Source: a virus
Direction: 5' to 3' (one strand)
IMG/VR virus record: IMGVR_UViG_3300002144_000620
Span: 1 to 64,000 of that record
DNA: 64,000 nucleotides
Shown: piece after piece, positions 1-48,243 of the stretch
Layout of the letters: every line of letters begins with the position of its first letter
How positions within the stretch are numbered: the stretch's first letter is position 1
Made by a program: the position numbers and the translations under genes
Notes under the pieces: model-generated
What the model saw: only the letters and a program-made list of their open reading frames with translations
What the model was told of the DNA's origin: nothing
The model's database searches: none

Positions 1-1731
1 GGTAATAATGGTGGTAACGGTCTTAATAGAGTAAGTGGTGTTTCAGGTACTTCAGGGTCTAATGGATCTAACGGTGTTAATGGTAATGCTGGTAACAAAG
101 GCGTTTCAGCACTTTCTGGGTCTAGTGGGACATCAGGTTCGTCTGGTATTGCTGGTGCTATAGGTTCTTCAACTGTTAGCGGATCTTCAGGTTCATCAGG
201 TTCTAACGGTACTTCAGGTAATAACGGTGCTGCTGGTCTTAGTAGAGTAAGTGGTGTTTCAGGTTCGACTGGTACAAATGGATCTAATGGTGTTGCGGGT
301 AACTCGGGTAATTCTGGTTTATCAGGTGTTTCGGGATCAACTGGATCTTCAGGTTCTAATGGCGCTAATGGTAATAATGGTGCTAAGGGTGTTTCAGGGG
401 TAAGTGGTACTACTGGTTCTAACGGTTCTAATGGTAATAGTGGTATTGCTGGTAATAGTGGTGCTTCAGCACTTTCTGGATCTTCTGGTACTTCTGGATC
501 TTCAGGTAATAACGGTGGTAATGGTGCTAGTAGAGTAAGTGGTGTTTCAGGTTCGACTGGTACAAATGGTTCTAATGGTGTAACTGGAAATAATGGTAAT
601 AATGGTCTATCTGGTAACTCTGGTATTTCAGGTTTATCAGGTTCATCAGGTTCTAATGGTTCTTCAGGTAATAATGGTGGTAACGGTGCTAATAGAGTTA
701 GTGGTGTTTCAGGTACTTCAGGATCAAATGGATCTAACGGTGTTAATGGTAATGCAGGTAATAAAGGTGTTTCGGCATTAAGTGGTACCTCTGGATCTAA
801 CGGGTCTTCAGGTAATAACGGTGTTGCTGGAGCTAATAGAGTTTCTGCACTAAGTGGATCTTCAGGTTCATCAGGTACAGCTGGTTCTTCAGGTAATAAT
901 GGTGCTAATGGTCTTAGTAGAGTAAGTGGCGTATCTGGATCTTCAGGGTCTAATGGATCTAACGGTGTTAATGGTAATGCTGGTAACAAAGGTGTTTCGG
1001 GTGTGAGTGGTACTTCAGGATCAAATGGATCTAACGGTGTTAATGGTAATGCTGGTAACAAAGGTGTTTCGGGTGTGAGTGGTACTTCTGGATCTAACGG
1101 TGCTAATGGTAATAATGGTAACAGCGGTGTAAACGGTAATAGTGGTACATCGGGTAATGCAGGTGCTTCGGGTAACAACGGTGCTAACGGTAACTCAGGT
1201 AGAAACGGTACGAATGGTACGAATGGAGTTGCTGGTAACAGTGGTACATCGATAAATGGTACTTCTGGGATAAGTGGTGGTGTTTTTGCTACACCACTTA
1301 ATGCTTTTGTAAGAACTGTTAGTGCTAATCAGGTACAGAGTATTGATTATATGTATGTTAATACAGCTCAACAACGTGTTGGTATTAGAAATCCAACACC
1401 GAATTACACTTTAGATGTTACTGGTGATATATTTGCTAGTGGTAATATTATTGCTTTTTCAGATGAAAGAGTTAAGGATAATATCGTAACTATTTCTGAC
1501 GCACTTAATAAGGTTAGAAATTTAAGAGGTGTTAATTATACTAGAATCGAGGATGCGGATAAATCGTTAAGAATGGGTGTTATAGCACAGGAAGTTCAGA
1601 AAGTTATTCCTGAGGTTGTTGAGACACTTGAAAGTAACGGGTATTTAGCTGTAGCTTATGCTAATATGGTTGGTTTGTTAATTGAGGCAATAAAAGACCT
1701 AGACAAACAAGTTCAAGAATTAAAAAAATAA
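1..1731 (+). CDS. Collagen-like tail fibre protein with C-terminal S74 chaperone domain (5'-truncated by window)
   Basis: The reading frame is open from base 1, so the true start lies outside the window; 576 codons are visible. Codons 1 to about 425 are an uninterrupted triplet repeat with Gly first, the other positions mainly Ser, Asn, Thr, Val and Ala, and no proline. Gly is replaced without loss of register by Arg (RVS triplets at about bases 28, 244, 532, 694, 838 and 919) or Ala (ALS triplets). The last ~90 residues match the Peptidase_S74 intramolecular chaperone: a SDERVKDNI-type start near base 1459, then VRNLRGVNY, MGVIAQEVQKVIPEVV and a terminal coiled segment. In this family the domain trimerises the fibre and usually cuts itself off at the Ser. 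It is probably a receptor-binding or side fibre. It converges on the glycosylation operon and ends at a strong terminator. Confidence 0.9.
   Translation, partial: GNNGGNGLNRVSGVSGTSGSNGSNGVNGNAGNKGVSALSGSSGTSGSSGIAGAIGSSTVSGSSGSSGSNGTSGNNGAAGLSRVSGVSGSTGTNGSNGVAGNSGNSGLSGVSGSTGSSGSNGANGNNGAKGVSGVSGTTGSNGSNGNSGIAGNSGASALSGSSGTSGSSGNNGGNGASRVSGVSGSTGTNGSNGVTGNNGNNGLSGNSGISGLSGSSGSNGSSGNNGGNGANRVSGVSGTSGSNGSNGVNGNAGNKGVSALSGTSGSNGSSGNNGVAGANRVSALSGSSGSSGTAGSSGNNGANGLSRVSGVSGSSGSNGSNGVNGNAGNKGVSGVSGTSGSNGSNGVNGNAGNKGVSGVSGTSGSNGANGNNGNSGVNGNSGTSGNAGASGNNGANGNSGRNGTNGTNGVAGNSGTSINGTSGISGGVFATPLNAFVRTVSANQVQSIDYMYVNTAQQRVGIRNPTPNYTLDVTGDIFASGNIIAFSDERVKDNIVTISDALNKVRNLRGVNYTRIEDADKSLRMGVIAQEVQKVIPEVVETLESNGYLAVAYANMVGLLIEAIKDLDKQVQELKK
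955..1098 (+). repeat. 72-bp tandem repeat inside the collagen-like region
   Basis: Two adjacent 72-bp (24-codon) units starting at 955 and 1027 are identical over about the first 62 bases. Related words recur across the whole first 1.2 kb. The near-identity at the DNA level suggests recent duplication, and the unit keeps both the codon frame and the Gly-X-Y register. Confidence 0.8.
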
Positions 1732-1740
1732 CATAAAAAT

Positions 1741-1765
1741 AAAAGGGCTGATAAGGCCCTTTTTT
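1741..1765 (+). terminator. Bidirectional intrinsic terminator between convergent genes
   Basis: An 8-bp stem (aaaagggc/gccctttt) with a 7-nt loop is followed by a T run on the plus strand and by a T-rich stretch on the minus strand. It sits exactly between the fibre stop and the stop of the minus-strand gene at 1764. Confidence 0.85.
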
Positions 1766-2597
1766 ATTTCTTTAAACTTAATAAAGATCTTAACGCATTG
1801 TTTTTTAGCGTTTGCTTGTCCACTACGATGTTTTCATCTATAAAATGATACTTTATGTTACCTAGAGAAGAAATGATCTCTAAGGCGATATTTAAGGCTT
1901 GTTTTGTGTATTTAAAACTAACATATTCACTACTTGAGTGCATATTGTAATATCCGACAGAATAATTGATACAAGAGAAGTCGTGAAAAGATCCTAGAAT
2001 ACTAACGTCAGTGTATGGGTGTCTACCTAGTTCGTAGTCGCCCATGTAATCTTCAAGGATTGGTTGAATTGTTTTGTAAAAATCACCAAATTCGTCAAAT
2101 AATTTAACACCGTTACAGTAATGTGTAACCCAATCAGATTCTGGTGCATCAAATTGTAATGTATATCCAACATTTTTAAAGAATGTTTCGTCTGAAAGTA
2201 TCGACCCAAAACACCCGTATTCTTCTGACACAAAAAAAACAACTTTAAGTACGTCAACACTTTCAAGTAATTCTAAACAAACGTAAACACCTGCTTTATT
2301 ATCGCCACCACAACCAGTCTTTTTTTTAGTACCTTTTTCGATGGCATATAAAAAATCGTCATTGTTATTATCTTCAATAATTTCCATATCAACTATCCCG
2401 TGAACTGAATCCGTATGTGCTACAACACATGGGTAGTTATCAGCAGTACCTTTCGTTACATATATGTTACCATATTGATCAATAACATATTTTAATTTAC
2501 TCTTACCGAGATATTTTACTATTTTAGCAATAAGATATTGTTCTTGACCACAGTATGTTGGTGTTGATAGTATATCTTTTAATTTTTCTTTACTCAT
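1764..2597 (-). CDS. M20/M42-like zinc metallopeptidase or amidohydrolase
   Basis: A 277-residue protein with the ligand pattern of co-catalytic zinc aminopeptidases. HTDS at residues 61-64 gives the His/Asp pair, GCGGDNKAG at 95-103 the bridging Asp (D99), VSEEYG the catalytic/ligand Glu pair (E125/E126), Asp150 a further ligand, and NMHSSSEYVS the last His (H220). The order resembles peptidase T and M42 enzymes, but the protein is shorter than usual and I see no room for a full dimerisation domain. It is the last gene of the glycosylation operon, 9 nt after the heptosyltransferase-like gene. It may therefore act on a glycan or glycopeptide (a deacetylase or peptidase); that is inference, and the substrate cannot be read from the sequence. 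Confidence 0.7.
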   Translation of the reverse strand: MSKEKLKDILSTPTYCGQEQYLIAKIVKYLGKSKLKYVIDQYGNIYVTKGTADNYPCVVAHTDSVHGIVDMEIIEDNNNDDFLYAIEKGTKKKTGCGGDNKAGVYVCLELLESVDVLKVVFFVSEEYGCFGSILSDETFFKNVGYTLQFDAPESDWVTHYCNGVKLFDEFGDFYKTIQPILEDYMGDYELGRHPYTDVSILGSFHDFSCINYSVGYYNMHSSSEYVSFKYTKQALNIALEIISSLGNIKYHFIDENIVVDKQTLKNNALRSLLSLKK

Positions 2598-2606
2598 TGG
2601 GTTTTT

Positions 2607-3866
2607 TTAGAAGAATTTACCAAATAGTCTTTTGGTTTCTTTTTTAACTGGTTCGATTGTTTTGTTTTTTCTGGATAGTGCTTTATCAACACTTTCTATT
2701 ACCTGATCAATAGTTATTGTTTTACTACACTCAAAGTGTCTATCGGTATCTTTGTGATCTGGGCACCATTCCCAATCACCTGGATTTAACCATTCTCTAT
2801 TAAAACAACCATTACAAGTATTTTCATTAGGTGTAAACACTCTTTCACAATCATTAAATTCTGATAAAGGTTTACTAAAACCAGATATTAAAACTGTGGG
2901 TGTTCCGATGGCCCATGATATCCAACTAAGACCACTACCTAAACCAATAAAGGCGTCAGCGTGTTTTATATCAATCATACGGTCATTTAAGTCTATGTGT
3001 CCACCAGTTTTATCAATCACACCTGTTAAAGTACCACCTAATTTAGAATCGTGCCAAGGGTCATTTAATTTTTCTGACGTAATCATAACTACTTTATAAC
3101 CTTTATCATTTAAATAATCAACAACTTTTTGCCACCCACCTGGTGTGTTCCAGTATTTAGCGTGAGCTGATGCGTGTGGTGCTATAACAACGTATTTACC
3201 ATCAAACCTACTAGGTTCATCAGGTACGCTTACAATAGGTTTTATCTCTTCATAATCTAACCCTAAGATGGAGCTAGATGTTTGTTGTAAAGGGAATTTT
3301 TTAAAATCTATGGGTATCTTTGTTGTAACAACTTTTTTATCATCATAAAACCAACCTATGTTATACATAGCGTATAGATTTTCAACAGGGGTACCTGGTT
3401 TGACAAATTTAATATTAGGGTATTTTGATTCAAACCAATCATTGTGGAAAGTAGAGCAAATCATTTCACAGTTATGTTTTTTCTGGAACTCATCAATATA
3501 TGGGAACCAAGCTAATGTGTCACCAACAGCTGAACTACCCATGTGTATGTAAACTCTTTTATTTTCAGCATTATAGTTATGTTCAAACACAATTTCATTT
3601 ATACTAAGATCGTAAATCTTAATGTTCCAATCAACAAAATACTCTAACGAACTTTTTGTCCACATGTTATTTGTTATTTCAGAACTGTGATGTATCTTAC
3701 CAGTTCTATTATCTGTAAATACAACTTTATATTTACCCTCTAACGGACCCTTTATTTCGCAAAAGGGTCCATTTGTGAAATGTGTTATAAATGAGTTGGT
3801 TGGTTCTTTATAACCTTTTCTTAAAATTTCTGTGTTATTGTACTCTTTAATTAATATTTCCTTCAT
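2607..3866 (-). CDS. TibC/Aah (BAHT)-like protein O-heptosyltransferase, GT9-type fold
   Basis: 419 residues. The C-terminal two thirds is a GT-B heptosyltransferase-like domain: HMGSSAVGDTLAWFPYI at about 108-124, VVIAPHASAHAKYWN near 226-240 and an IGLGSGLSWISWAIGTP segment at 307-323. After it comes a Cys cluster, C351-x2-C354-x13-C368-x11-C380, in the context CNGCF...WEWCPDH...HFEC. A Cys4 iron-binding finger near the C-terminus is the hallmark of the bacterial autotransporter heptosyltransferase (BAHT) family, which moves heptose from ADP-heptose to protein Ser residues; LPS heptosyltransferases lack it. It overlaps the carbamoyltransferase gene by 20 nt. The Ser-rich fibre two genes away is an obvious candidate acceptor, by inference only. 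A separate heptose-kinase-like gene lies at 41350-42096. Confidence 0.8.
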   Translation of the reverse strand: MKEILIKEYNNTEILRKGYKEPTNSFITHFTNGPFCEIKGPLEGKYKVVFTDNRTGKIHHSSEITNNMWTKSSLEYFVDWNIKIYDLSINEIVFEHNYNAENKRVYIHMGSSAVGDTLAWFPYIDEFQKKHNCEMICSTFHNDWFESKYPNIKFVKPGTPVENLYAMYNIGWFYDDKKVVTTKIPIDFKKFPLQQTSSSILGLDYEEIKPIVSVPDEPSRFDGKYVVIAPHASAHAKYWNTPGGWQKVVDYLNDKGYKVVMITSEKLNDPWHDSKLGGTLTGVIDKTGGHIDLNDRMIDIKHADAFIGLGSGLSWISWAIGTPTVLISGFSKPLSEFNDCERVFTPNENTCNGCFNREWLNPGDWEWCPDHKDTDRHFECSKTITIDQVIESVDKALSRKNKTIEPVKKETKRLFGKFF

Positions 3867-5484
3867 ATTTCTTATAAATAAAATTGTTTATGATTAATAG
3901 GTCAACAACATCATTATCTAGATGTGTAAACGCTTCGTTTGGATGACATACTATTGGTTCACCGTGTACGTTAAACGATGTGTTTAAAAGCACGGGTACT
4001 TGGGTTATCTTATTATATTCATCCAGTATCTTATGGAAAGTTGGGTTACTATCCTTAGTCACTATTTGTATCCTAGCTGTTTTATCAACTGGATGCACTA
4101 CCGTTGGTATCCTATCAACCCATTCAGGTTTGGTATCGTATAGCATTGTCATAAACTCAGCTGTGTATCTTGATTTAGTTACCTCAAATATATCACTAGC
4201 ATATTCACTCATAACAGCAGGTGCAAATGGCATAAAATCATTTCTTTGTAACTTATTATTGATTTTATCATATGTATCTGGGTTAGTTACCTCACCTATT
4301 ATACTTCTATTACCTAGTGCTCGTGGTCCGTGTTCGTATCTACCATTAAAAACACCTATGATTTTACCTTCGGATAAATATTTAGCGGCTATTTCTGGTG
4401 TGAATAACTCTCTACTGAATTTATTCATATCCCAATACCCCTCACCAACCTCTTGATCAGTAAAACTGGTACCTAAGTACATATCACTTAACTTAAAAGG
4501 TTTAAATTCAGGTGTGTTAATTTTATGTGTCATTATGGCACAACCTAAAGCACAACCTTCGTCACCCATTGGGGGTGCCACAAACATTTCGTCAACCCAA
4601 TATAATTCATTTAATACTTTATTAAGTTTTACGTTAGCAAAAATACCTCCAGCTACTGCTAGTTTTTTAATGTTTGGGTACCTGTTGTGTAGGTTGTTTA
4701 CTATAGTTAAAACCTTTTCTTCAAAAAATTTCTGTCCAGTATAAGCTATATCGGACTTGTCACCAAAATATACTTTTGAACCTAATTCTTTGTAATAAGC
4801 TGTATAGAAGTCTAAATAAAGTTTACCTAAAATCACATCGTCACTATCTTTTTTATTATCGTCATCGGTATGTATATCAATGACTTTAAAAGCTTCGTTT
4901 AATGCGTGATATGTTATTACGTCATGATTACCGTGAGCCGCCATACCAACAACCTTACCTTCGTCTTTAAGTCGTTTAAAACCTAAAAACTCGGTTATTA
5001 ATGAATATAGATGTCCGAATGATTTTTTCTCGATATCTATACCGTCAATAAAATTTAAATTACCCTCGCTACCAACAAAGTATTTAGCACTGTACTCACC
5101 ACCGCTAGCATCCATTGTTACAACTAACGTATCGTCTTGGAAATTACTCATATAATAAGCTGTTGCTGCATGAGAATCGTGATGGTCAATAAAAACAAAT
5201 TTTTCATCAGGAAATTCACCTAAGTTCATTTCCTCCCAAAACGATTTAACCTCTTTTTTGGGGTAATAACTAGTAATATAATCAAGTGAGTTTAAATCTA
5301 AACCAAACTTGTTAATAGCTATGTTTATTGAATCCATTGGGTATCTAAAATACCCGTCATAGAAATCTTGATATACCTTTACCCTTACGTGTCTTTCTTC
5401 TTCTAAGGAGAACACAATGTTACCATCCTCAACTAAGGATATACCGCAACAATGTTCACCAAATGACATTCCTAATATTTTCAT
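3847..5484 (-). CDS. O-carbamoyltransferase, NodU/CmcH/TobZ family
   Basis: 545 residues, full length for the family. The N-terminal domain starts with ILGMSFGEHCCGISLVEDG and carries the HHDSHAATAYY His/Asp cluster at 101-111, VVTMDASGGE at 121-130, AVAGGIFANVKLN near 276-288 and PPMGDEGCALG near 304-314. The C-terminal domain contains HGPRALGNRSI at 385-395, typical of the YrdC-like carbamoyl-adenylate site. Family members make carbamoyl-AMP from carbamoyl phosphate and ATP and carbamoylate a sugar hydroxyl. Its start codon overlaps the preceding stop (TAATG), showing tight coupling to the GT4 gene. The acceptor is unknown; a sugar made by the surrounding glycosyltransferases is the natural guess. 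Confidence 0.9.
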   Translation of the reverse strand: MKILGMSFGEHCCGISLVEDGNIVFSLEEERHVRVKVYQDFYDGYFRYPMDSINIAINKFGLDLNSLDYITSYYPKKEVKSFWEEMNLGEFPDEKFVFIDHHDSHAATAYYMSNFQDDTLVVTMDASGGEYSAKYFVGSEGNLNFIDGIDIEKKSFGHLYSLITEFLGFKRLKDEGKVVGMAAHGNHDVITYHALNEAFKVIDIHTDDDNKKDSDDVILGKLYLDFYTAYYKELGSKVYFGDKSDIAYTGQKFFEEKVLTIVNNLHNRYPNIKKLAVAGGIFANVKLNKVLNELYWVDEMFVAPPMGDEGCALGCAIMTHKINTPEFKPFKLSDMYLGTSFTDQEVGEGYWDMNKFSRELFTPEIAAKYLSEGKIIGVFNGRYEHGPRALGNRSIIGEVTNPDTYDKINNKLQRNDFMPFAPAVMSEYASDIFEVTKSRYTAEFMTMLYDTKPEWVDRIPTVVHPVDKTARIQIVTKDSNPTFHKILDEYNKITQVPVLLNTSFNVHGEPIVCHPNEAFTHLDNDVVDLLIINNFIYKKYEGNIN

Positions 5485-6431
5485 TAAATTGATAATGGTT
5501 TTTGATAAACTTTTAATAATTCTACTGATCTATTGTACCAGGATAGTGATTTAGCATGATTTATAGCCTTTGTTCGGTAATTATCGTAATCACTGATAAT
5601 ATCATCCAAACCATTAACTAAAGCTAAAACATTTCTATTAGCTCTCCACATACCACTAAAATCCGTCTCCATCTCAATCCAACCATTAATAGGTAGACCG
5701 CATGCAGCAGCTTCTAATATAGTTAGATTAGGGTGACCAGCCTCTAACTCAGATGGGTGCATAAATATTGTATGTCTTTGATATAAATCTAATAACCCAT
5801 CCTGATTAGGTTCCCACTCTAAATTTAATTTAGGGTAACCGTAAACCCATGGGTTTTCTTTTAAGAAGTTTTCATTATTTCTTGGCCCAGCTATTGTAAT
5901 TGGTAAGTTTTTGGCCATAGCAGCTTTAATAGCGAATCCAAACCCTTTTCTATCGTAACCATCCATACCAGCCATACCGTTATTCGCTAAGCAAAGTAAT
6001 CTATGTTCTTTAGGTGTTTCCGATGGTTTAAAAAAGTCTGTGTTAACACCATGTGAGAAATAAACTGCTTTAGGTGTATTGAAGTATGGTACTAAAAATC
6101 TACCTGGCATTAGAGATACTTCAGAGTTCTCAATGGCTAATAAATTTTGTTTAAATACCTGAGAATCTTTACCATAGTAATATGCGTGATGATCATGTAG
6201 TTGGTATATGTATTTAACACCTCTTTCATGTAGGAAAATAGCTAGGTTAGCCATATGTACGTGTACTACATCGTAATCACCTGGTTTTATCTCATTAGCA
6301 TACTTTATATCAACAGTATGACCTAATTTTCTTAAGTTTTGGGTAAACTCCCAAACTATTTTTTCTACAGCACCCCAACTTGGTGGTGGTACTGGTATCC
6401 CGCATCCAGGGTGTACTTGACATATTTTCAT
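5484..6431 (-). CDS. GT4-family glycosyltransferase
   Basis: 315 residues with a GT-B layout. The N-terminal Rossmann half starts MKICQVHPGCGIPVPP and contains the WGAVEKIVWEF sugar-donor loop type found in GT4 enzymes. The C-terminal half contains HPSELEAGHPNLTILEAAACGLP (about 225-247), the conserved E-x7-E nucleotide-sugar binding region. No signal peptide or membrane segment is seen, so it acts in the cytoplasm. It lies 30 nt after the large multi-domain transferase in the same operon. Donor and acceptor cannot be assigned. Confidence 0.88.
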   Translation of the reverse strand: MKICQVHPGCGIPVPPPSWGAVEKIVWEFTQNLRKLGHTVDIKYANEIKPGDYDVVHVHMANLAIFLHERGVKYIYQLHDHHAYYYGKDSQVFKQNLLAIENSEVSLMPGRFLVPYFNTPKAVYFSHGVNTDFFKPSETPKEHRLLCLANNGMAGMDGYDRKGFGFAIKAAMAKNLPITIAGPRNNENFLKENPWVYGYPKLNLEWEPNQDGLLDLYQRHTIFMHPSELEAGHPNLTILEAAACGLPINGWIEMETDFSGMWRANRNVLALVNGLDDIISDYDNYRTKAINHAKSLSWYNRSVELLKVYQKPLSI

Positions 6432-6461
6432 ATTATTACTATATTCTTTTACTTATGTAAA

Positions 6462-9209
6462 TTATCCCGCAAAAATTTGTGGATAATCATTGTCTTTGCT
6501 TTTATCCTTTTTATCAACAATTGAATAACCTGGTAGGTGTTTAGTATAAACTTTATCAGCCATTGCACCGTGTAATCCAGCAACCTTAGTCATCCAAAGA
6601 TCAAAAGCTTCCCATTTGCATGTCTCAAACTTACTAACAAAGTTAGGTAATTTTTCTCTATTAATCAAATAAGATTGGGCTGGTGCAAAAATACTTAGGT
6701 TTAAAAGTAAATCTTCTCTTTGACCACTATATCTTTCCGCACAGTAATTACCAAAACCAACCATATCAATATTCTCTTCTTTAGCTAATTTTGACCATCT
6801 AATTAAATTATCGTACAACTCATCATATGGGGAATCTATAATAACATCACCCTCAAACACCAAAATAAAATCAAATTCATTGTTGCTTTCCATGGTTATA
6901 CCATTTTTATGTGCTAAGAAGCACCCGTAATGACCTGGGGATAATTTAAAGTAACCTGGTTCCATCGCAACGTCTTTAGGTCTGTGGCACGTATCTAATG
7001 GGGGTAATTCCTTGTATATAACATTTACCTTTTCATAGTACTCGATATTATCGAAATCACTAGCAAAATCTTTTAATGATTTAGATGAAATTAACTCTTT
7101 AGGATTTGTATCTGGTTCCGTAACTAAATGAACTATTCTAATCTTAGGTTTTTTATTACCAGATATAATTTTAACCTCATCAATTTTATTATGTGTGAAT
7201 TTACCGTTATTAGGTAATATATTGATTAGATAGTTATTATCAACTATTATAGTTTTATTTTCTATCAATTTGTTGGAATGCATATCAAAACTAGTGTACT
7301 CGATTGAGTATTTACTGTTTTCAGATAGGTTGTATTCGACAAGTTGGTATGAACTACATTTACCAGAAACTGATACATCATAGTTTTTTATTAAATCACC
7401 ATCTTTATTTATTTTAATATTAACTATACGACTATCAACTGAATTGGATATTTGTAGATATACTACAAATGTGTTCGGTATGTTACTAGGTAATATAGTA
7501 AAATATTCTACCATAGAATAATCTTTGTGTGTTAAATTAGTATTAACATCGGCAATAAAATTATTTTCTGGCACTAATTCAATTTGATCTAACTTATCTT
7601 TAAAAGCAAAATACATTAAATTCTCGTAACCGTTGCTAAATGAACCCCATTTTAGTCTTAAATTTTCATAATCGTTAGCAGAATTAATTCTATCAACGGT
7701 GTCTAAATAAAATTCTGGACGAATTCCCATAAAGTATGTTACAACCGAGTGACCCTCGGCATTGTCTGGCATATCACCAAAATAAGCTGACTTACTGTTT
7801 AGTTTTTGTGATATATTATTTAAATATTCTGTATTAGGGTTTAATATATAATCATAATTTAAAAAATATACTTTGCTAATACCTAATTCTTTAGCTAAGG
7901 CAGCTCCATTATAATAATTAGTGTAACATGTTGGTCCGTGATATATGTCATTACCTTCACCTCTTAAATTAACAAAAGAATGGAAATCACCTTCACTATA
8001 CCTACTTTGAGAATAAAAAGTGTGTTTAGTTAAAATATTATTTTTATCATACACAAAATAATCAACCAATTCTTGTAATTCAGTTGATATTGGTAAGTGT
8101 GATGTTAATATAACTTTTCTACCAGTGGCTTTAGCTGACATAATACACTCTATGGTTGTATCGTAAGCACTCTTTGTTTTTGGATAGGTTGATATTATAA
8201 TAGCTTCATTACTAGGGTCAATAACCTCATTAATAGTTGTTGCAGGGGTTTTGTTTAGGGTTTCACTTATTAATTCACAATTTTTATCAAAATTAGTGAA
8301 GTCTAGGTAACCAATATTTTCAAATTTATCAAAATAATCTAAATAAACACCTAAGTTGTAGATTAATATTGGTAGGTTCCATGAAATAGCCTCACGAATA
8401 ACTAGTGGCATTGTTTCTTTATCGTTATTTGAACCTCTTGATGTAAATAAGAATAGGTCCATGGCTCCATAAAAACGTTCTACATCATTTCTTTCACCAT
8501 GCCATATAACATTTTTTGGTTTATTGATCATTAAAGGTTCCCAGTAATAAGCGAAATTACCCGATTGGTTACCAACAGTGTGGAAAACGTGATCTGGTAA
8601 ACTCCTAGCGTATTCAAAAAACTCAGCCTGATTTTTTCTAGGTGTAAATAAACCAACGTGTAGAATATGTTTTTTTGTTGGGTCTAAACCTAAGTCAATT
8701 AAAGATTTTTCTCTATTGGGTCTATTTTGGTATTCGATTGGGTATTCTACCAGTACTTTAGGTATTTCATTTATACTTTCAAATAATTTTATTTGCCAAT
8801 CAGATACAAACATAAATTTATCTGGAAAGAATTTTTTTTGTGTTGCATCGTATGATGAATCGTGTGATGTTTCGACAATTACGTAATTTCTATCGTCTTT
8901 GTAAAGATTTTTTGCGACATTAAAATCCATGAAATACTCTGGTATTTCTTCTAAGTGTACAATATCTGGTTTAACTCTATTAACAATATCAATGAGTTCC
9001 ATTTTATTCTCGTGTAGTGTGAAAAATCTATCAGGATCAACCATAGATGTTATCCTGTCACGCTGCACCACTAACACGCCTCCAGTATGATTTGACCATT
9101 CTATTACATAGATCTCAAACGTATCCTTAAGTAATTCTATTTTTTTCGTTAGATACTGCGGTAAACCACCTGTAGATAGGTGCGGTGCGATATATAATAA
9201 TTTCTTCAT
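6462..9209 (-). CDS. Three-module glycosyltransferase: GT4 - middle domain - GT25
   Basis: 915 residues. Residues 1 to about 340 form a GT4-like GT-B domain (LYIAPHLSTGGLPQYLTKKI, HVGLFTPRKNQ, then FTSRGSNNDKETMPLVIREAISWNLP with the donor-binding Glu residues). About 345-690 starts AIIISTYPKTKSAYDTTIEC and resembles a GT-A-like or accessory module I cannot name. The last ~220 residues look like GT25 (LPS galactosyltransferase / procollagen galactosyltransferase family): HYGCFLAHKNG, then VFEGDV at 784-789 in place of the usual EDD metal motif, and a late LPGYSIV. It is the first gene of the glycosylation operon, about 20 nt downstream of a Bacteroidota-type promoter. GT25 is known from collagen glycosylation, which is notable beside a collagen-like fibre. 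Confidence 0.82.
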   Translation of the reverse strand: MKKLLYIAPHLSTGGLPQYLTKKIELLKDTFEIYVIEWSNHTGGVLVVQRDRITSMVDPDRFFTLHENKMELIDIVNRVKPDIVHLEEIPEYFMDFNVAKNLYKDDRNYVIVETSHDSSYDATQKKFFPDKFMFVSDWQIKLFESINEIPKVLVEYPIEYQNRPNREKSLIDLGLDPTKKHILHVGLFTPRKNQAEFFEYARSLPDHVFHTVGNQSGNFAYYWEPLMINKPKNVIWHGERNDVERFYGAMDLFLFTSRGSNNDKETMPLVIREAISWNLPILIYNLGVYLDYFDKFENIGYLDFTNFDKNCELISETLNKTPATTINEVIDPSNEAIIISTYPKTKSAYDTTIECIMSAKATGRKVILTSHLPISTELQELVDYFVYDKNNILTKHTFYSQSRYSEGDFHSFVNLRGEGNDIYHGPTCYTNYYNGAALAKELGISKVYFLNYDYILNPNTEYLNNISQKLNSKSAYFGDMPDNAEGHSVVTYFMGIRPEFYLDTVDRINSANDYENLRLKWGSFSNGYENLMYFAFKDKLDQIELVPENNFIADVNTNLTHKDYSMVEYFTILPSNIPNTFVVYLQISNSVDSRIVNIKINKDGDLIKNYDVSVSGKCSSYQLVEYNLSENSKYSIEYTSFDMHSNKLIENKTIIVDNNYLINILPNNGKFTHNKIDEVKIISGNKKPKIRIVHLVTEPDTNPKELISSKSLKDFASDFDNIEYYEKVNVIYKELPPLDTCHRPKDVAMEPGYFKLSPGHYGCFLAHKNGITMESNNEFDFILVFEGDVIIDSPYDELYDNLIRWSKLAKEENIDMVGFGNYCAERYSGQREDLLLNLSIFAPAQSYLINREKLPNFVSKFETCKWEAFDLWMTKVAGLHGAMADKVYTKHLPGYSIVDKKDKSKDNDYPQIFAG

Positions 9210-9265: not shown

Positions 9266-9293
9266 AAAGGGTGAGAAAATTTTCCCACCCTTT
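9262..9293 (-). terminator. Intrinsic terminator after the major capsid gene
   Basis: Arms 9266-9279 and 9280-9293 form a 14-bp stem on the minus-strand transcript, with one G-U wobble, followed by six U. It separates the head operon from the glycosylation operon. Confidence 0.85.
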
Positions 9294-9324: not shown

Positions 9325-10902
9325 TTATCTGAAACCTCCGATACCGAAGCTAACGATATTTTTACACTTGATAACACCATAGAAACGGTTATTAACCATT
9401 TTCTTAGCGTAACGAGTCATAATACCTTTAACTGGTGCGAAAGTGAACGGGTTGTACATTGTTGGAGTTAATTGCATCGGCACGTATGGTGCGTAGATGT
9501 AACCAGTATCCAATAATGAAGTACCTTTGTGTCCCATTAAGATTGTGTCAGCTGGGAAGTAAGGATCACGGTATACTTGGTATCTTCCACCCAATGAACC
9601 GATTCTTTCGATACCCATGTTGAATTTATCTTGCTCTGGAGCTGCATTAGATACGTGGAAGTACTCTAAATCGTCCAAAATAGCTGAAACCTCAGCAGAT
9701 ACAACGATCCAGTTAGCACCACCTCTTAATGTAGCTTTGTGAATTTGTGCAGAAACTTGGTTAACCGCAGTGATTAACGTTTGGTTCCACTCTTTTTGAG
9801 TATAGAAACCATTTGATGCAGAAATACCACCAGTATTAACTCTAGATCCAGAGTAATCCCATGTCATTCTCCATGCAGCACCTCTACGTAAATCTCTTAA
9901 GATTTCACGATCGATTTCAGCAGCAACTTGCTCAGATAATAAAGCTGTTAATTCAGCTTCAGCATCGATGTTGTGGAATGCACTAACATCTTGAGCTAAT
10001 TCTGGAGACCATTGAGCTCTTAATTTTCTCTCGATAACAGAAACTGTTACAGATTTAAGTTCAAAAGAAACTTCACCCATTTCATCACTGTACTCTAAAG
10101 ATTCGTATTCTTTAGCAGTTGCAGTAATACCTGATAAAGGTAAAGCTACTGTAGTACTGTTGTTAACTATAGCAACATAAACGTCACCGTTAGCTTCCAT
10201 AACTGAATTACCATATTTTTGAGCTGGTAAATAGAAATCGAAATCAGCGCTAGCTGTAGCAGAAAGTACAGATAGTGTTGACATAATTTCTTCAGAATTT
10301 TCCCAGTTTGAGATACTTGAAACGAAATTCATTTTTACGATTGAAGTAGTTCCAACTGGTACAGAAGTACCAACTAAAGCAGCGTAACCATTACCATTAG
10401 CGTCAAATTCATAAAGATTTGCAACAGTAACTGTTGCAGTTAGAGATGTAGCAGCACCTTTAGAGTTGTCATAAAGACCATTTTCTCCGTAGAATGCGTC
10501 ATACAAGTTAGGGCTAACTGAAGTTCCTGTTGGATCGATACCAGCAGAACCAGCACCAAATGCTGAATTCTCCAATTTCGGGATAAAGTAGAACAATTTA
10601 CCAATTGGTAAGTTCAACGCTTGTACCGAAACGATTTCGTTAGCTAATAATTTTGAGAATACTCTTCTCACGATTGGGAATACCACAGTTTCGAAAGAAC
10701 CTTCGTTACCTAATGCAACTGATTCATTAAGCATGTAAGATGCTTGATTTTCAAATAATTGTGCGATATTCTCTTTTTTGTGACCACCTAGACCTTCTAA
10801 AAGTCCAAGTCCGTCCCATCTGTTAATTACGTCAGTACGTACCTCTTTTAAATGATTAAGGCCTACGTTACCAACTTTTCCTGATTCTAATAATGCTCCC
10901 AT
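9325..10902 (-). CDS. Major capsid protein, T4 gp23 family
   Basis: 525 residues, close to T4 gp23 (521). The N-terminus is a short pro-region, and VVFPIVRRVFSKLLANEIVSVQALNLPIGKLFYF (about 74-107) matches the gp23 core opening. LNE at residues 58-60 fits the L-x-E consensus cut by T4-type prohead proteases, giving a mature start at Ser61 (T4 cuts after residue 65). The C-terminus ends in the conserved PFTFAPVKGIMTRYAKKMVNNRFYG-type region. It is the last gene of the head block, after scaffold, protease, portal and terminase genes, and is followed by a strong terminator. Its start has an A-rich leader without a Shine-Dalgarno sequence. Confidence 0.95.
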   Translation of the reverse strand: MGALLESGKVGNVGLNHLKEVRTDVINRWDGLGLLEGLGGHKKENIAQLFENQASYMLNESVALGNEGSFETVVFPIVRRVFSKLLANEIVSVQALNLPIGKLFYFIPKLENSAFGAGSAGIDPTGTSVSPNLYDAFYGENGLYDNSKGAATSLTATVTVANLYEFDANGNGYAALVGTSVPVGTTSIVKMNFVSSISNWENSEEIMSTLSVLSATASADFDFYLPAQKYGNSVMEANGDVYVAIVNNSTTVALPLSGITATAKEYESLEYSDEMGEVSFELKSVTVSVIERKLRAQWSPELAQDVSAFHNIDAEAELTALLSEQVAAEIDREILRDLRRGAAWRMTWDYSGSRVNTGGISASNGFYTQKEWNQTLITAVNQVSAQIHKATLRGGANWIVVSAEVSAILDDLEYFHVSNAAPEQDKFNMGIERIGSLGGRYQVYRDPYFPADTILMGHKGTSLLDTGYIYAPYVPMQLTPTMYNPFTFAPVKGIMTRYAKKMVNNRFYGVIKCKNIVSFGIGGFR

Positions 10903-33305: not shown

Positions 33306-34151
33306 TTACTTTCTCAAACTTTTCATTTTCGATAACTCACCACCAAATAATTCTCTTGGTCCTTCTGGTATTAATAAAGATTCTTCAATATCTCGTATAC
33401 CTTTAACCAATTTAAATAAACCAGATGGTTCAATAGATGCTGAGTGATCTGACCCCCACATACCTCTGTCTAATGTTATATGACGCTCTACCCATGTCAC
33501 ACCCATCGGTATTGTAGCAAAAGTAGTTACTAAACCGTATTCGTGTCCACTATAACCTATTTCTTTTTCGGTGTAATGGTTTTTTAACCATGTTATATAA
33601 TTTAAGTTTAATTCACTTACTGGGCATGGGTATGTTGAGTTTGTGTGCATTATAACGTCAGGGTTACACGAGTCTATACATAAAGTTACTTCATCTTCAT
33701 TACTCATACCCGTTGAGACCATTAGGTAGTCAGCTTTATCTCTAGCGTATTTACATAGTTCGATATCGGTTATTAGTGCTGATGGTATCTTCATAGCGAT
33801 TCCTAGATCACTTTTATACCTCATCATAAAGTCTACTGACGTTTTGTCCCAAACGGATGCAAACCAATTAATACCAATCTCTTTGCAGAATCTGTCTATC
33901 TCATCATATTCAATCTCACCAAACTCAGTTTTCCATTTGTATTCTAAGTAAGTTATCTCACCCCACGGTGTTTGTCTCATCTTATTTTTTTGTTCTTCTG
34001 GTACACAGATATCTGGGTTTCTTTTTTGAAACTTAACGTAATTACAGCCAGCTGCTTTAGCCACTAATATTAATTGTTTGGCAATATTAATGTCACCGTT
34101 GTGATTAATACCTATTTCACCTATTATTTTAACACTATTTTTTTTATTCAT
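33306..34151 (-). CDS. neuB: NeuB-family nonulosonate (sialic acid) synthase, lacking the SAF domain
   Basis: 281 residues. EIGINHNGDINIAKQLI at about 11-27, VKFQKRNPD, the KIPSALITDIEL barrel strand, MVSTGMS, HTNSTYPCP, EIGYSGHEYG and VERHITLDR-GMWGSDHSAS are the ordered hallmarks of the NeuB TIM barrel, which condenses phosphoenolpyruvate with an acetylated mannosamine or related sugar. Usual enzymes are ~340 residues with a C-terminal SAF (antifreeze-like) domain; here the protein ends right after the barrel. The exact product (Neu5Ac, legionaminate, pseudaminate or other) cannot be read. It overlaps the FkbM gene by 8 nt. Confidence 0.9.
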   Translation of the reverse strand: MNKKNSVKIIGEIGINHNGDINIAKQLILVAKAAGCNYVKFQKRNPDICVPEEQKNKMRQTPWGEITYLEYKWKTEFGEIEYDEIDRFCKEIGINWFASVWDKTSVDFMMRYKSDLGIAMKIPSALITDIELCKYARDKADYLMVSTGMSNEDEVTLCIDSCNPDVIMHTNSTYPCPVSELNLNYITWLKNHYTEKEIGYSGHEYGLVTTFATIPMGVTWVERHITLDRGMWGSDHSASIEPSGLFKLVKGIRDIEESLLIPEGPRELFGGELSKMKSLRK

Positions 34152-34776
34152 TGTAATATTTTTTATTTAAAAGTATATAATCATTTTGTTTAACATTTAT
34201 TGATGATGATTTAAATATAGAGTAAAAACCTTTATTGTAAATATATTCTAAAACCTCTGGTTCTAATGTTTGTCCGTTAAAATATTCAACCTCTTCAGTT
34301 TCAATTTGTAAGACTTTAATGTTTTCCAATAAATTACCAAAGCTTTCTAGAGCCTCTAATGTGGCGCCTTCAACGTCTATTTTAACTAAGTCTGGTGTTG
34401 GTGAGTTATTTTTATTTATAAATGTATCCATTCTTTTGCATTCTAACTCAACCAATACTTCTTTAGTTTTAGATAAATTTTGTTCAAAAATACTATGTAT
34501 ACCATTTTTTTCTTTATGAAAAAAATTAGTTTTACCATCGTAATTACGTATAATCATGTTATGGAAATTAACTTTATCCGTATCTTTACCTAATAAGAAT
34601 TTTTCGTAATTATCAGGTAAACCTTCAAACCCAATAACTTTACAGTTGAATAGTTCCGATAATAGAAAACTGTCAAATCCGTTAAGGCAACCTATATCGT
34701 AAATTAATTTTATTTCAGAAGTGTTTATTTTTTTATCTAAAACACTTTTTATTGTTTGCATCTCTAATCTCGCCAT
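34144..34776 (-). CDS. FkbM-family SAM-dependent methyltransferase
   Basis: 210 residues from the ATG at 34776. IYDIGCLNGFDSFLLSELF is the SAM-binding motif I, VIGFEGLPDNYEKF the acidic loop, and MDTF...PDLVKIDVEGATLEALESF the defining FkbM segment. Family members O-methylate sugars. An ATG at 34839 would extend the protein but overlap the upstream GT gene by 76 nt, and an ATG at 34761 starts 2 nt after the upstream stop; 34776 fits the small overlaps seen elsewhere. It lies between the NeuB-like gene and a GT-B gene. Confidence 0.88.
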   Translation of the reverse strand: MARLEMQTIKSVLDKKINTSEIKLIYDIGCLNGFDSFLLSELFNCKVIGFEGLPDNYEKFLLGKDTDKVNFHNMIIRNYDGKTNFFHKEKNGIHSIFEQNLSKTKEVLVELECKRMDTFINKNNSPTPDLVKIDVEGATLEALESFGNLLENIKVLQIETEEVEYFNGQTLEPEVLEYIYNKGFYSIFKSSSINVKQNDYILLNKKYYNE

Positions 34777-35615
34777 TTTTCGTAAATTTTTATATATTCG
34801 TTTGCGATTATTTCTGGATCCCAATTTGCTTCCATCCATAATCTAGTTTTATACCCAATATCTAATATATCATCTAATCCAGATTCAATTAAATCTATTA
34901 ATTTATTCTCTAAATCATAATAATAGACATTTATAAACGGGTTATTTTTAGCACCTGAAGATCTTAGTAATACCTCCTCCACGCTATTGTCGGTTGAGCA
35001 TATTGTTGCAATACCCATAGCCATTGATTCTAAGCCAGATCTATGGTATGATGATGTTTTAACTTCATCTATGAATATGTTACACATCGACTTTCTATCT
35101 AGACACACTTCTAGTGGTACACCAGTTATTATATCTAACTCAACTTTACCCTTATATAGTTCTTTTATTCTATTTAAGATTGGTATGGTCTCTGAATAAC
35201 CTTTATCAGCCCATTCGGATGTTGGTTCTATCGTTGATGGAGAGTAACCTATACGTATAACTTTATCTTGGTATTTAGGTAAAAAATCTATGTCGTATAA
35301 ATCAACTGGGTTTCTAACTATTCTACAATTATGGTACTCTTTTAGTGTTGCGTGATACTGCGCTATAACCAATTTCGGTAAACTAACATTTAAGTCAACT
35401 CTAAAGGGTTCACTATGATATTGTATGATACTTTTTTTATTGGTTCTAAAGACTTTATTATGTTGATGTATGATGTCTGAATCAGGTCTTATTAATTTAT
35501 TAGGATACGAATATCCTATTACAAATGATTGATGATCAGTATATTTATTAATTACACCACTAATAGCCTCAGGAGCTTTAGCTATGCTAGTATTTTTAGT
35601 GTGTGTTATCACCAT
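34764..35615 (-). CDS. GT-B-type glycosyltransferase
   Basis: 283 residues. N-terminal THTKNTSIAKAPEAISGVINKYT resembles a GT4 acceptor-side loop. The C-terminal half contains IRIGYSPSTIEPTSEW, ELDIITGVPLEVCLDRKS, and DEVKTSSYHRSGLESMAMGIATICS with the donor-binding Glu, then a final helix. Short for GT4, with a trimmed N-terminal domain. Overlaps the GT29-like gene by 20 nt. Confidence 0.75.
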   Translation of the reverse strand: MVITHTKNTSIAKAPEAISGVINKYTDHQSFVIGYSYPNKLIRPDSDIIHQHNKVFRTNKKSIIQYHSEPFRVDLNVSLPKLVIAQYHATLKEYHNCRIVRNPVDLYDIDFLPKYQDKVIRIGYSPSTIEPTSEWADKGYSETIPILNRIKELYKGKVELDIITGVPLEVCLDRKSMCNIFIDEVKTSSYHRSGLESMAMGIATICSTDNSVEEVLLRSSGAKNNPFINVYYYDLENKLIDLIESGLDDILDIGYKTRLWMEANWDPEIIANEYIKIYEKWRD

Positions 35616-36591: not shown

Positions 36592-37213
36592 TTAACTCTT
36601 TTTCCGTATCAATATCAATAACATCACTTATCCCAAAAAAATAAGTTTCGTTATTATATAAATTATTATTTAGTTTATTAATCTCATTTATATTAAATAT
36701 ACTGATGTAGTGTGATATTTCAAAAATATTTGGATAATCTTGTCTACGATACATATCATGTTTAATTAGTTGGGTACCTTTATTTTCACCAGTATCCAAC
36801 ATGTATAAATACGGGTGTGTACCTTTTATATCTTTTTTACATAATAAACTTTTAATATTTTTATTAGTAAAAATATTATACACCTCTTTGATCTGATTAA
36901 ACGTTCTTTCTGGATAAGTTAAGTATAACATTATTACCACATCGTCTTCATTTAAATCACCGTTTTTTACGAGGTATTCAACAACTTCTTTTGTACTAGT
37001 TGTATCAATAGATAGCTCGTCTGGTCTAATAGATACCCTTAAACCAATTGATTCACATTTTTCGATTAAGTATTCATCGTCTGTTGATACAATTATTTGT
37101 TTATGGTATTCTTTTGGTATAACATCAATAGTTTTATTAAAAAGTAATCTATTTTTAAATGGTAATCCTTTTGAGTTCCTTCTGGCTGGTATTAGTATTT
37201 TTACGTTATTCAT
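36566..37213 (-). CDS. neuA: CMP-N-acetylneuraminate synthetase-like cytidylyltransferase
   Basis: 215 residues. KILIPARRNSKGLPFKNRLLF at 5-25 is the NeuA/KdsB nucleotide-binding loop. IIVSTDDEYLIEKCESIGLRVSIRPDELSID follows, and the end has the VIDIDTEKEL motif that carries the metal-binding Asp residues. It activates a nonulosonate with CTP. Overlaps with the two GT29-like genes (26 and 8 nt) place it between them, making a donor-synthesis plus transfer cassette with the NeuB-like gene 2.4 kb downstream. Confidence 0.88.
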   Translation of the reverse strand: MNNVKILIPARRNSKGLPFKNRLLFNKTIDVIPKEYHKQIIVSTDDEYLIEKCESIGLRVSIRPDELSIDTTSTKEVVEYLVKNGDLNEDDVVIMLYLTYPERTFNQIKEVYNIFTNKNIKSLLCKKDIKGTHPYLYMLDTGENKGTQLIKHDMYRRQDYPNIFEISHYISIFNINEINKLNNNLYNNETYFFGISDVIDIDTEKELNELLHKKR

Positions 37214-41349: not shown

Positions 41350-42096
41350 TTATTTGGGTGTTACAACTCCTCGTCTACTTACAACATCAGCTGATTTTTT
41401 GTTAGCGTCCATTATGGATAAACCTATATTGCCAGTAATGTAATAAGCTGATATAAATGCCGCTGTAAATGTATCCCCAGCACCACTGACATCAATTGTC
41501 TCTTGTGGATTTGGTGATGGATAATGGTTATTTTTATAACTAGCACCATTTTGACCTAGAGTTACGATGATGCCTTCATGATTTAAACTATCGTTATTCA
41601 TGAACTCATTTTCGTTTAGTTTAATAAAACTAAAATCTTTAATAATTTCATCCGTTAATTTTCTTTTACTATCTAATATAGATAACTTTGAATTACTAGA
41701 TATTTTTTTTAAATCAATGTCCGATAAAAAACCTTTGTTGTAATCACTTACAATAACAATATCCGAATCATTTATTACTTTATTGATATTATTATCATAT
41801 TTAAAAGGGGTTATAGATCTTTCACCATCATCAACACGTAAAAACATGTGATTAGATTTAGATTCAACATATCTAGTTTTTGTTATATTTTCTATCTGAG
41901 TAATTGTAGATACGTTTGATTCGTGTAGTATTACTCTGATATTAGCCTCTGTATTACCAGCCATACCGTTATTTTCGATTATTTTAATAGGGTTCAGAAC
42001 TGGAACTGGTGCTTCTGGTGATAATCTGTTTACATCGCAATAGATAAATCTATCTATACAAGTTTCACCAATAACTAAGACGTTAACGTTATTCAT
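41350..42096 (-). CDS. HldE/RfaE domain I-like heptose kinase (PfkB family)
   Basis: 248 residues. VLVIGETCIDRFIYCDVNRLSPEAPVPVLNP holds the RLSPEAPVPV signature of RfaE/HldE domain I (residues 24-33). IDVSGAGDTFTAAFISA (201-217) is the PfkB ATP/anion-hole motif with catalytic Asp208. HldE-type kinases phosphorylate D-glycero-D-manno-heptose 7-phosphate at C1 on the way to ADP-heptose. The protein is shorter than usual (~310-330 residues for domain I) and the nucleotidylyltransferase domain is absent, so the host would have to complete the pathway. It starts 4 nt after a Bacteroidota -7 box and is the first gene of the long operon. Confidence 0.82.
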   Translation of the reverse strand: MNNVNVLVIGETCIDRFIYCDVNRLSPEAPVPVLNPIKIIENNGMAGNTEANIRVILHESNVSTITQIENITKTRYVESKSNHMFLRVDDGERSITPFKYDNNINKVINDSDIVIVSDYNKGFLSDIDLKKISSNSKLSILDSKRKLTDEIIKDFSFIKLNENEFMNNDSLNHEGIIVTLGQNGASYKNNHYPSPNPQETIDVSGAGDTFTAAFISAYYITGNIGLSIMDANKKSADVVSRRGVVTPK

Positions 42097-48193: not shown

Positions 48194-48211
48194 TATATTG
48201 TTTATTTTGGA

Positions 48212-48243
48212 CAAATATAGTATAAGCTTAGTTAAAAAACAAA
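48212..48243 (-). promoter_or_regulatory. Bacteroidota-type promoter TTTG-N20-TATATTTG for DNA polymerase
   Basis: TATATTTG (plus caaatata, 48212-48219) and TTTG (plus caaa, 48240-48243) are separated by exactly 20 nt, matching the Bacteroidota housekeeping consensus. The -7 box ends 18 nt before the ATG at 48193; the -33 lies in the terminator right arm. Confidence 0.65.

What the first reader, a model, noticed from the sequence alone, without database searches (positions are those of the whole stretch)
1..3866. A BAHT-type O-heptosyltransferase beside a Ser-rich collagen-like fibre
The 2607-3866 protein has the GT9-like fold plus a Cys4 finger (C351, C354, C368, C380) that marks the TibC/Aah family, which O-heptosylates Ser of beta-helical autotransporters. 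Two genes away is a ~425-residue Gly-X-Y repeat full of Ser and Thr. A heptose-kinase-like gene at 41350 could feed ADP-heptose. The phage may therefore O-glycosylate its own fibre.
Basis: partly seen in the sequence, partly recalled or inferred. Interest (0 to 1): 0.82.

Follow-up and report, generated by a model that had tools for sequence, protein, structure and literature searches.

The report
Phage enzyme paired with sugar-coatable collagen fibre
This freshwater phage, like many other phages, carries a relative of a bacterial enzyme that attaches heptose sugars to serines, next to a giant proline-free, serine-rich collagen-like tail fibre, so these viruses probably sugar-coat their own collagen.

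Summary
The 2607-3866 protein scores 321.6 bits against TIGR04414 (cut-off 200). Its predicted fold matches TibC best (TM 0.86). The catalytic Asp, Lys, Trp and all four iron-finger Cys are present and kept in 173 phage relatives.

The interpretation gains support. Of 57 phage enzyme clusters (80% identity), 40 have a Gly-X-Y gene in the DNA held, 13 of them next door. That collagen is nearly proline-free and Ser-rich. In 86 collagen-bearing viral contigs fetched without regard to the enzyme, it occurs in 5 of 15 Ser-rich contigs and 1 of 71 others. Six related records carry heptose-1-P adenylyltransferase-like and heptose-7-P kinase-like genes directly behind it. AIDA repeats, the usual autotransporter substrate, are absent from 49 records.

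In a tree, the phage enzymes and a few bacterial ones beside G-[ST]-S proteins are split (support 100) from the TibC/autotransporter clade. The thumb tip needed for TibC's dodecamer is not conserved, so this is a BAHT-like sister clade, not a strict BAHT.

Caveats: nothing is biochemically tested, this phage lacks a recognisable adenylyltransferase, and some Ser-rich phage collagens lack the enzyme.

The parts
1..1731 (+). C-terminal part of a collagen-like tail fibre: Gly-X-Y tract (residues 1-430; Ser 105, Asn 78, Thr 23, Pro 0; Y position Ser 57/129) followed by an S74 chaperone domain; proposed substrate. Open at the window start; the record probably breaks inside this gene
   Evidence: Pfam Collagen E 7e-51 and Peptidase_S74 E 7.7e-16; composition; another open ORF at the other end of the record
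1741..1763 (.). Bidirectional terminator-like hairpin between the convergent fibre gene and glycosylation operon
   Evidence: consensus scan only
1764..2597 (-). M42/M28-like peptidase (phrog_4191), last gene of the operon; role unknown
   Evidence: kept beside BAHT in the own clade
2607..3866 (-). BAHT-like protein O-glycosyltransferase (TibC/AAH homologue): N-terminal beta-barrel, GT-B core with D116, S233, K237, R296, W315, and Cys4 finger C351/C354/C368/C380
   Evidence: TIGR04414 321.6 bits; TibC phmmer 1e-57; AF2 pLDDT 89.7, Foldseek top TibC TM 0.86; residue table
3847..5484 (-). NodU/TobZ-type O-carbamoyltransferase; overlaps the BAHT gene by 20 bp; may cap the glycan (inferred)
   Evidence: Carbam_trans_C E 5.4e-59, Carbam_trans_N E 1.8e-40; phrog_1601
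5484..6431 (-). GT4-type glycosyltransferase; fused to BAHT in one polypeptide in other phages
   Evidence: PF00534 E 2.2e-6; fusions in L088, L213, L214, L406/L495
6462..9209 (-). Large 915-aa glycosyltransferase (GT4-type domain, residues 167-302; weak GT25-like match near the C-terminus)
   Evidence: PF00534 E 4.1e-12; PF01755 E 0.0016, below cut-off; AF2 model too poor to use
9266..9293 (-). Strong terminator-like hairpin after the major capsid gene; sets the five-gene operon apart from gp23
   Evidence: consensus scan only
41350..42096 (-). HldE/RfaE domain I-like kinase (phrog_8133) with RLSPEAPVPV and DVSGAGDTF motifs; possible D,D-heptose-7-phosphate kinase
   Evidence: TIGR02198 98 bits, ribokinase 32.8; PDB 4e84 E 2.9e-9

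Best explanation
The operon 9209-1764 is a phage protein-glycosylation cassette. The BAHT-like enzyme transfers a heptose, probably from ADP-D,D-heptose, onto serines of the collagen-like fibre encoded next to it. It would act mainly on Y-position serines, each followed by the Gly of the next triplet. The two other glycosyltransferases and the carbamoyltransferase would then extend and cap the sugar. In a collagen with no proline or hydroxyproline, dense O-glycosylation would stabilise and hydrate the triple helix and shield the fibre. Shown here: enzyme homology, conserved active site, operon, recurrent pairing with Ser-rich collagen, and ADP-heptose-type genes in relatives' operons. Inferred: catalysis, donor, sites, order of steps, and purpose.
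For: Enzyme: TIGR04414 321.6 bits; TibC best by sequence and by fold (TM 0.86). D110, K230, W305 and the four Cys of TibC are kept in 172-173 of 173 phage rows. Pairing: 40 of 57 clusters have a Gly-X-Y ORF in the DNA held, 13 directly adjacent. In the test subset 11 of 38 loci are adjacent against 4.8 for random genes in the same loci (max 11 in 2000 draws). Gene order varies: convergent, upstream, downstream. Composition: enzyme-seeded collagens have median Ser 40% of X+Y, Y=Ser 60%, Pro 0, against 5%, 2% and 12% in collagen-seeded contigs without it nearby. In the collagen-seeded set the enzyme occurs in 5/15 Ser-rich against 1/71 other contigs (Fisher p 0.0005). Donor: adenylyltransferase-like plus kinase-like genes lie just behind the enzyme in six records. 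The kinase-like gene occurs in 10/51 enzyme-bearing and 1/48 control records (p 0.008). Bacteria: Methylobacter, Burkholderiales, Arenicellales and another gammaproteobacterium pair clade members with G-[ST]-S proteins, several with signal- or lipoprotein-like starts. Usual substrate absent: no AIDA repeats in 49 records. TibC sites Ser313 (NSGG) and Ser322 (TSA), PMC4358343, resemble X-S-G in the fibre.
Against: No biochemical data. This genome shows the kinase-like gene but no adenylyltransferase, so the host would have to finish the donor. Of 28 clusters with at least 8 kb held on both sides, 7 show no Gly-X-Y gene. Ser-rich collagen exists without the enzyme, for example in the 190-kb record G132 (S 51%, Y=Ser 85%) and in G023 and G044, so Ser-richness alone does not imply this enzyme. 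TibC's thumb tip F265/V266, needed for its active dodecamer, is K/L here, and the adenine-contacting Arg is missing in 62 of 173 phage rows, including the HldE-operon ones. Many sampled contigs are related, so counts of loci are not independent events.
Confidence: 0.66

Rival explanations
1. The cassette changes the host surface (LPS or O-antigen) during infection, for example to block superinfection. The BAHT-like protein would act as an ordinary GT9 LPS heptosyltransferase.
For: Pelagimyophage glycosyltransferases and rfaE were read this way (PMC7029224). GT4, carbamoyltransferase and NeuB/NeuA/GT29-like genes are also surface-glycan genes. The GT9 core is shared with WaaC/WaaF.
Against: Sequence and fold are far closer to TibC than to LPS transferases (321 against 42 bits; TM 0.86 against at most 0.59). 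The protein keeps the TibC-type beta-barrel and Cys4 finger. The gene stays beside Ser-rich fibre genes through rearrangements.
Confidence: 0.15
2. The enzyme glycosylates another virion protein, such as the major capsid protein gp23 (next operon), the tail sheath or a non-collagen fibre. The collagen is a neighbour only because fibre genes are modular.
For: In the own clade the operon lies beside gp23. Elsewhere BAHT is followed by a sheath gene. Seven well-flanked clusters show no collagen nearby. Mycobacteriophage capsid and tail-tube glycosylation is known (Freeman 2023, cited in PMC12619734).
Against: No capsid or sheath gene is the constant partner, and a terminator-like hairpin separates gp23 from the operon. 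The collagen's Ser content predicts the enzyme. Bacterial clade members without virion genes nearby also sit beside G-[ST]-S proteins.
Confidence: 0.12
3. The genes serve DNA hypermodification (glycosylated or carbamoylated bases).
For: Phage glycosyltransferases often modify DNA (Markine-Goriaynoff 2004, cited in PMC7029224). A carbamoyltransferase is present.
Against: The operon lies among virion genes, not nucleotide-metabolism genes. BAHT-family enzymes act on protein Ser (PMC4358343). The carbamoyltransferase was seen only in the own subclade.
Confidence: 0.04

Closest known systems
BAHT family: TibC (ETEC) and AAH, PDB 4rap/4rb4 (PMC4358343)
   Same: Beta-barrel, GT-B core, catalytic Asp, Lys and Trp, Cys4 iron-finger ligands; 33% identity and TM 0.86 to TibC
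   Different: Partner is a collagen-like fibre, not a beta-helical autotransporter; separate clade (support 100); thumb tip FV replaced by KL/YM or deleted; often fused to GT4 or methyltransferase domains
Mimivirus L230 collagen lysyl hydroxylase/glucosyltransferase (PMC9614988)
   Same: A virus-encoded enzyme modifies the virus's own Pro-poor collagen-like proteins
   Different: L230 puts glucose on hydroxylysine with a GLT25D1-like domain in a eukaryotic virus; here a BAHT-like enzyme and Ser, in phages
Glycosylated bacterial collagens such as BclA (PMC8968730)
   Same: O-glycosylation of a prokaryotic collagen-like protein, thought to aid hydration and stability
   Different: A spore-surface protein; no BAHT-type enzyme is named for it in the passages read
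E. coli prophage collagens EPclA/EPclB (PMC3368898)
   Same: Phage-borne collagen-like fibre proteins
   Different: Recombinant EPclA is Pro-rich and was found not glycosylated
Mycobacteriophage virion glycosylation (Freeman 2023, via PMC12619734)
   Same: Glycans on phage virion proteins
   Different: Capsid and tail-tube C-termini; no collagen or BAHT is named in the passage read

Membership tests
BAHT (TibC/AAH) | Score over the TIGR04414 curated cut-off | tested here: met
   321.6 bits, cut-off 200
BAHT (TibC/AAH) | Catalytic and donor residues D110, T226, K230, R286, W305 | tested here: met
   D116, S233 (conservative), K237, R296, W315 in the window protein; Arg is missing in 62 of 173 phage relatives
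BAHT (TibC/AAH) | Four cysteines of the iron finger | tested here: met
   C351/C354/C368/C380, invariant in 173 phage rows; iron binding itself was not testable
BAHT (TibC/AAH) | N-terminal beta-barrel and GT-B fold | tested here: met
   Strands 25-97, pLDDT 92-98; Foldseek TM 0.86 to TibC
BAHT (TibC/AAH) | Beta-hairpin thumb with hydrophobic F265/V266 tip for the dodecamer | tested here: not met
   KL in the window protein; K/L or Y/M in phages, deleted in some; no hairpin in that stretch of the model
BAHT (TibC/AAH) | Autotransporter partner (AIDA-type passenger) | tested here: not met
   No PF16168 hit in 49 enzyme-bearing records; 7 of 9 bacterial neighbours scanned carry AIDA or autotransporter domains
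BAHT (TibC/AAH) | Transfers heptose from ADP-heptose to Ser | not testable with these tools
   Needs an enzyme assay and mass spectrometry
Collagen-like fibre | Gly-X-Y tract over the Pfam Collagen cut-off, with a phage-fibre chaperone domain | tested here: met
   Collagen 170.3 bits, cut-off 27.2; Peptidase_S74 58.6 bits, cut-off 22
HldE domain I kinase (gene 41350-42096) | TIGR02198 equivalog cut-off | tested here: not met
   98 bits against 345; still the best of all families, and the RLSPEAPVPV and GAGD motifs are present
GT25 collagen glycosyltransferase (gene 6462-9209) | PF01755 over cut-off | tested here: inconclusive
   18.8 bits against 24; no hit at E 0.001 in three homologues; model poor

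The most novel reading that the evidence does not exclude
A separate clade of BAHT-like enzymes, in phages and a few bacteria, is specialised for Gly-X-Ser collagen-like repeats. Dense O-heptosylation by these enzymes, with glycans extended and capped by partner enzymes, replaces proline/hydroxyproline as the stabiliser of proline-free collagen. Some of these phages make part of the ADP-heptose donor themselves.
Probability: 0.5. Interest if true: 0.86.

Novelty: new variant of a known kind. Interest (0 to 1): 0.76.

Why it matters
If true, it gives the BAHT family a second substrate class, collagen-like repeats. It would be a collagen glycosylation system in bacterial viruses, where only a eukaryotic-virus example (mimivirus L230) turned up in the papers read. 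It would explain why many phage collagens have Ser instead of Pro, and would recast phage heptose genes, so far read as host-LPS modifiers, as virion-decoration genes. An isolated phage, Microcystis phage Mel-JY01, carries the pairing, so it can be tested directly.

Tried and rejected
(1) Canonical autotransporter substrate in the phage: no AIDA repeats in 49 records. (2) Full ADP-heptose pathway in this genome: the kinase-like gene is present, no adenylyltransferase; GmhA, GmhB and HldD were not searched. (3) A GT25 collagen-galactosyltransferase reading of the 915-aa enzyme: match below cut-off and poor model, dropped. (4) Ser-richness as proof of the enzyme: rejected, since Ser-rich collagen occurs without it. 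(5) Joining the two record ends into one fibre gene: not attempted; only open ORFs at both ends are reported. (6) The adenine-contacting Arg as a marker for ADP-heptose: dropped because HldE-operon members lack it too. (7) gp23 relatives as a natural experiment: the six closest gp23 relatives (76-90%) carry the enzyme; 22 records checked at or below 68% do not, and only one of these has a long Gly-X-Y tract, which is Ser-rich. So loss of the enzyme was not shown to go with loss of Ser. (8) Papers: none found linking phages with BAHT enzymes or heptose with collagen-like proteins; most subscription papers were not searchable.
Full report
WHAT WAS CHECKED. The window is the first 64 kb of a 153,961-base virus record, a T4-like myophage by its capsid protein (Gp23 E 1.2e-72). 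Its nearest isolated phage by capsid is Microcystis phage Mel-JY01, at about 41% identity. The 2607-3866 ORF is real and conserved: dN/dS against three relatives is 0.07-0.12. It scores 321.6 bits against TIGR04414, the TibC/Aah heptosyltransferase model, over its 200-bit cut-off. The next families, LPS heptosyltransferases, reach 42 bits. Among solved structures only TibC is found by sequence (E 1e-57). An AlphaFold2 model (pLDDT 89.7) is closest to TibC (TM 0.86, E 3e-39), well ahead of LPS-type heptosyltransferases (TM up to 0.59).

RESIDUES. The roles of TibC residues are taken from PMC4358343. D110 (base), K230 and W305 (donor) and the four iron ligands C339, C342, C358 and C370 correspond to D116, K237, W315, C351, C354, C368 and C380 here. 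They are kept in 172-173 of 173 phage sequences. T226 is Ser or Thr. The Arg that contacts adenine (R286, here R296) is kept in 111 of 173. The thumb tip F265/V266, without which TibC is an inactive dimer, is K/L here and K/L, Y/M or deleted elsewhere. The assembly may therefore differ from TibC's dodecamer.

OPERON. Five genes run on the minus strand with short gaps or overlaps. In order: a 915-aa glycosyltransferase (9209-6462), a GT4 enzyme (6431-5484), a NodU-type carbamoyltransferase (5484-3847), the BAHT-like enzyme (3866-2607) and a peptidase-like gene (2597-1764). Terminator-like hairpins lie after gp23 (9293-9266) and between the operon and the convergent fibre gene (1741-1763) (consensus scan only). 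In other phages GT4 and BAHT are one polypeptide (L088, L213, L214, and L406 seen fully in L495), and elsewhere BAHT is fused to other glycosyltransferase or methyltransferase domains. Fusion supports joint action.

THE FIBRE. ORF 1-1731 is the end of a collagen-like fibre: 129 of 144 triplets start with Gly, followed by an S74 chaperone domain. Its X and Y positions hold about 36% Ser, about 30% Asn and no Pro; 61 of 105 Ser are followed by Gly. Relatives have such ORFs of 500 to over 3000 residues. Another ORF runs off the far end of the record (152278-153961), so the record probably breaks inside a fibre gene.

RECURRENCE. A scan of IMG/VR with the window protein gave 80 loci, and two more scans with divergent members added about 80. 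At 80% identity these form 57 clusters. Forty have a Gly-X-Y ORF of at least 12 triplets in the DNA held. Many of those without are short contigs, but 7 of 28 with at least 8 kb on both sides also lack it. Thirteen have it directly adjacent. Where collagen is present, 11 of 38 enzyme genes are adjacent to it, against 4.8 for random genes of the same loci (maximum 11 in 2000 draws); within three genes it is 20 against 12.9 (maximum 22). The arrangement differs between groups: convergent with a peptidase between, upstream on the same strand with GT genes between, or immediately downstream on the same strand. A linkage that survives rearrangement is better evidence than one inherited block.

COMPOSITION AND A COLLAGEN-SEEDED TEST. 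Collagens near the enzyme have median Ser 40% of X+Y, Y=Ser 60% and Pro 0. Collagen-bearing viral contigs found by a Gly-X-Y DNA pattern alone, with no enzyme in the DNA held, have 5%, 2% and 12%. The whole records of 86 such contigs were then searched for TIGR04414. It was found in 5 of 15 with Ser at least 35% and in 1 of 71 others (Fisher p 0.0005; Ser fraction of hits against the rest, one-sided p 0.00015). The 35% line was set after the data were seen; the rank test does not depend on it. One of the five (L150) is a partial match at a contig end. Limits: contigs are fragments, and Ser-rich collagens without the enzyme exist (G132, a 190-kb record, S 51%; G023, G044).

DONOR SUPPLY. In L220 the enzyme gene is followed at once by a 130-aa protein best matching HldE domain II (97.6 bits; heptose-1-phosphate adenylyltransferase; curated cut-off 181.5) and a 248-aa homologue of the window's 41350 gene, best matching HldE domain I. 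The same pair lies directly behind the enzyme in six records from three clusters (L218; L220/L221; L224/L227/L229). The kinase-like gene occurs in 10 of 51 enzyme-bearing records and 1 of 48 control collagen records (p 0.008). Record lengths were not matched in that comparison. All these matches fall under the curated cut-offs, so the function is inferred. The window's own genome has the kinase-like gene and no detectable adenylyltransferase, so a host pathway would be needed. GmhA, GmhB and HldD were not searched.

EVOLUTION. In a maximum-likelihood tree of 76 sequences (quick method) a branch with support 100 separates two groups. Group I holds TibC and 22 bacterial enzymes; seven of nine neighbours of such bacterial enzymes that were scanned carry AIDA or autotransporter domains. 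Group II holds all 41 phage sequences and 12 sequences from bacterial or archaeal assemblies. Several of the latter are probably phage contigs in MAGs (sheath or fibre genes nearby). Others look chromosomal: Methylobacter luteus (4.5-Mb scaffold), Burkholderiales, Arenicellales and a gammaproteobacterium. Most of these sit beside a protein with (GTS)n or (GSS)n tracts, several with signal-peptide- or lipoprotein-like starts. Methylomagnum (L326) showed none. No AIDA repeat was found in 49 enzyme-bearing virus records.

MECHANISM. The best-supported reading is O-heptosylation of Ser in the Gly-X-Y tract. TibC modifies TibA Ser313 (QNSGG) and Ser322 (NTSAA) and not Thr (PMC4358343); a Y-position Ser in collagen gives the similar X-S-G context. 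Sugars are reported to stabilise collagen (Bann 2000, cited in PMC3368898; BclA, PMC8968730). A collagen without proline would gain most from that; this purpose is inference. The carbamoyltransferase and the two other glycosyltransferases would extend or cap the glycan, also by inference.

STATUS. It works like a BAHT enzyme and is homologous to that family, but two features used to describe BAHTs, the hydrophobic thumb tip and the autotransporter partner, were tested and not met. It is therefore filed as a BAHT-like sister clade. Novelty: a new variant of a known kind. No paper in the open library was found that links phages with BAHT enzymes or heptose with collagen-like proteins, but subscription papers were largely out of reach.

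Noticed in passing
window 33306-37745: Nonulosonic-acid-type genes in the phage: NeuB (E 3e-57), a CTP_transf_3 cytidylyltransferase, two GT29 sialyltransferase-like proteins and an FkbM methyltransferase.
   Followed up: no
window 41350-42096; L220 11474-12217: phrog_8133, annotated 'unknown function', matches the HldE domain I-like kinase here; in six related phage records such a kinase-like gene stands next to an adenylyltransferase-like gene behind BAHT.
   Followed up: partly
L323/L324 8923-9804, L328 1284-1943, L332 3596-3934, L334 11288-11914: In bacterial assemblies, proteins with (GTS)n or (GSS)n tracts lie beside BAHT-like genes of the phage clade; candidate bacterial substrates.
   Followed up: partly
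G000 149325-152240 and 152278-153961 (L087): Another fibre with collagen-like GTSGIDG-type repeats, followed by an ORF open at the record end; the window's fibre is open at the record start, so the record probably breaks inside a repetitive fibre gene.
   Followed up: partly
window 2607-9209 against 9325-10902: dS between the window and L003/L006 is 1.3-2.5 in the glycosylation operon but 0.35-0.49 in gp23, suggesting recombination or different histories of the two neighbouring units.
   Followed up: no
G132 (L496), G023 (L507), G044 (L510): Ser-rich collagen-like fibres in virus records with no BAHT hit; no glycosyltransferase was recognised by eye among the listed neighbours.
   Followed up: partly
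window 45092-48214: Family B DNA polymerase with a DUF7831 domain (residues 371-486) lying between the exonuclease and polymerase matches.
   Followed up: no
BAHT-like clade II, position of TibC R286: The adenine-contacting Arg is Leu, Val, Ile, Thr or Ala in 62 of 173 phage rows, mostly GT-fused forms among those looked at; donor specificity may differ there.
   Followed up: no
window 52823-54403: Protein with Laminin_G_3/ConA-like lectin domain (E 9e-38), possible sugar-binding virion protein.
   Followed up: no
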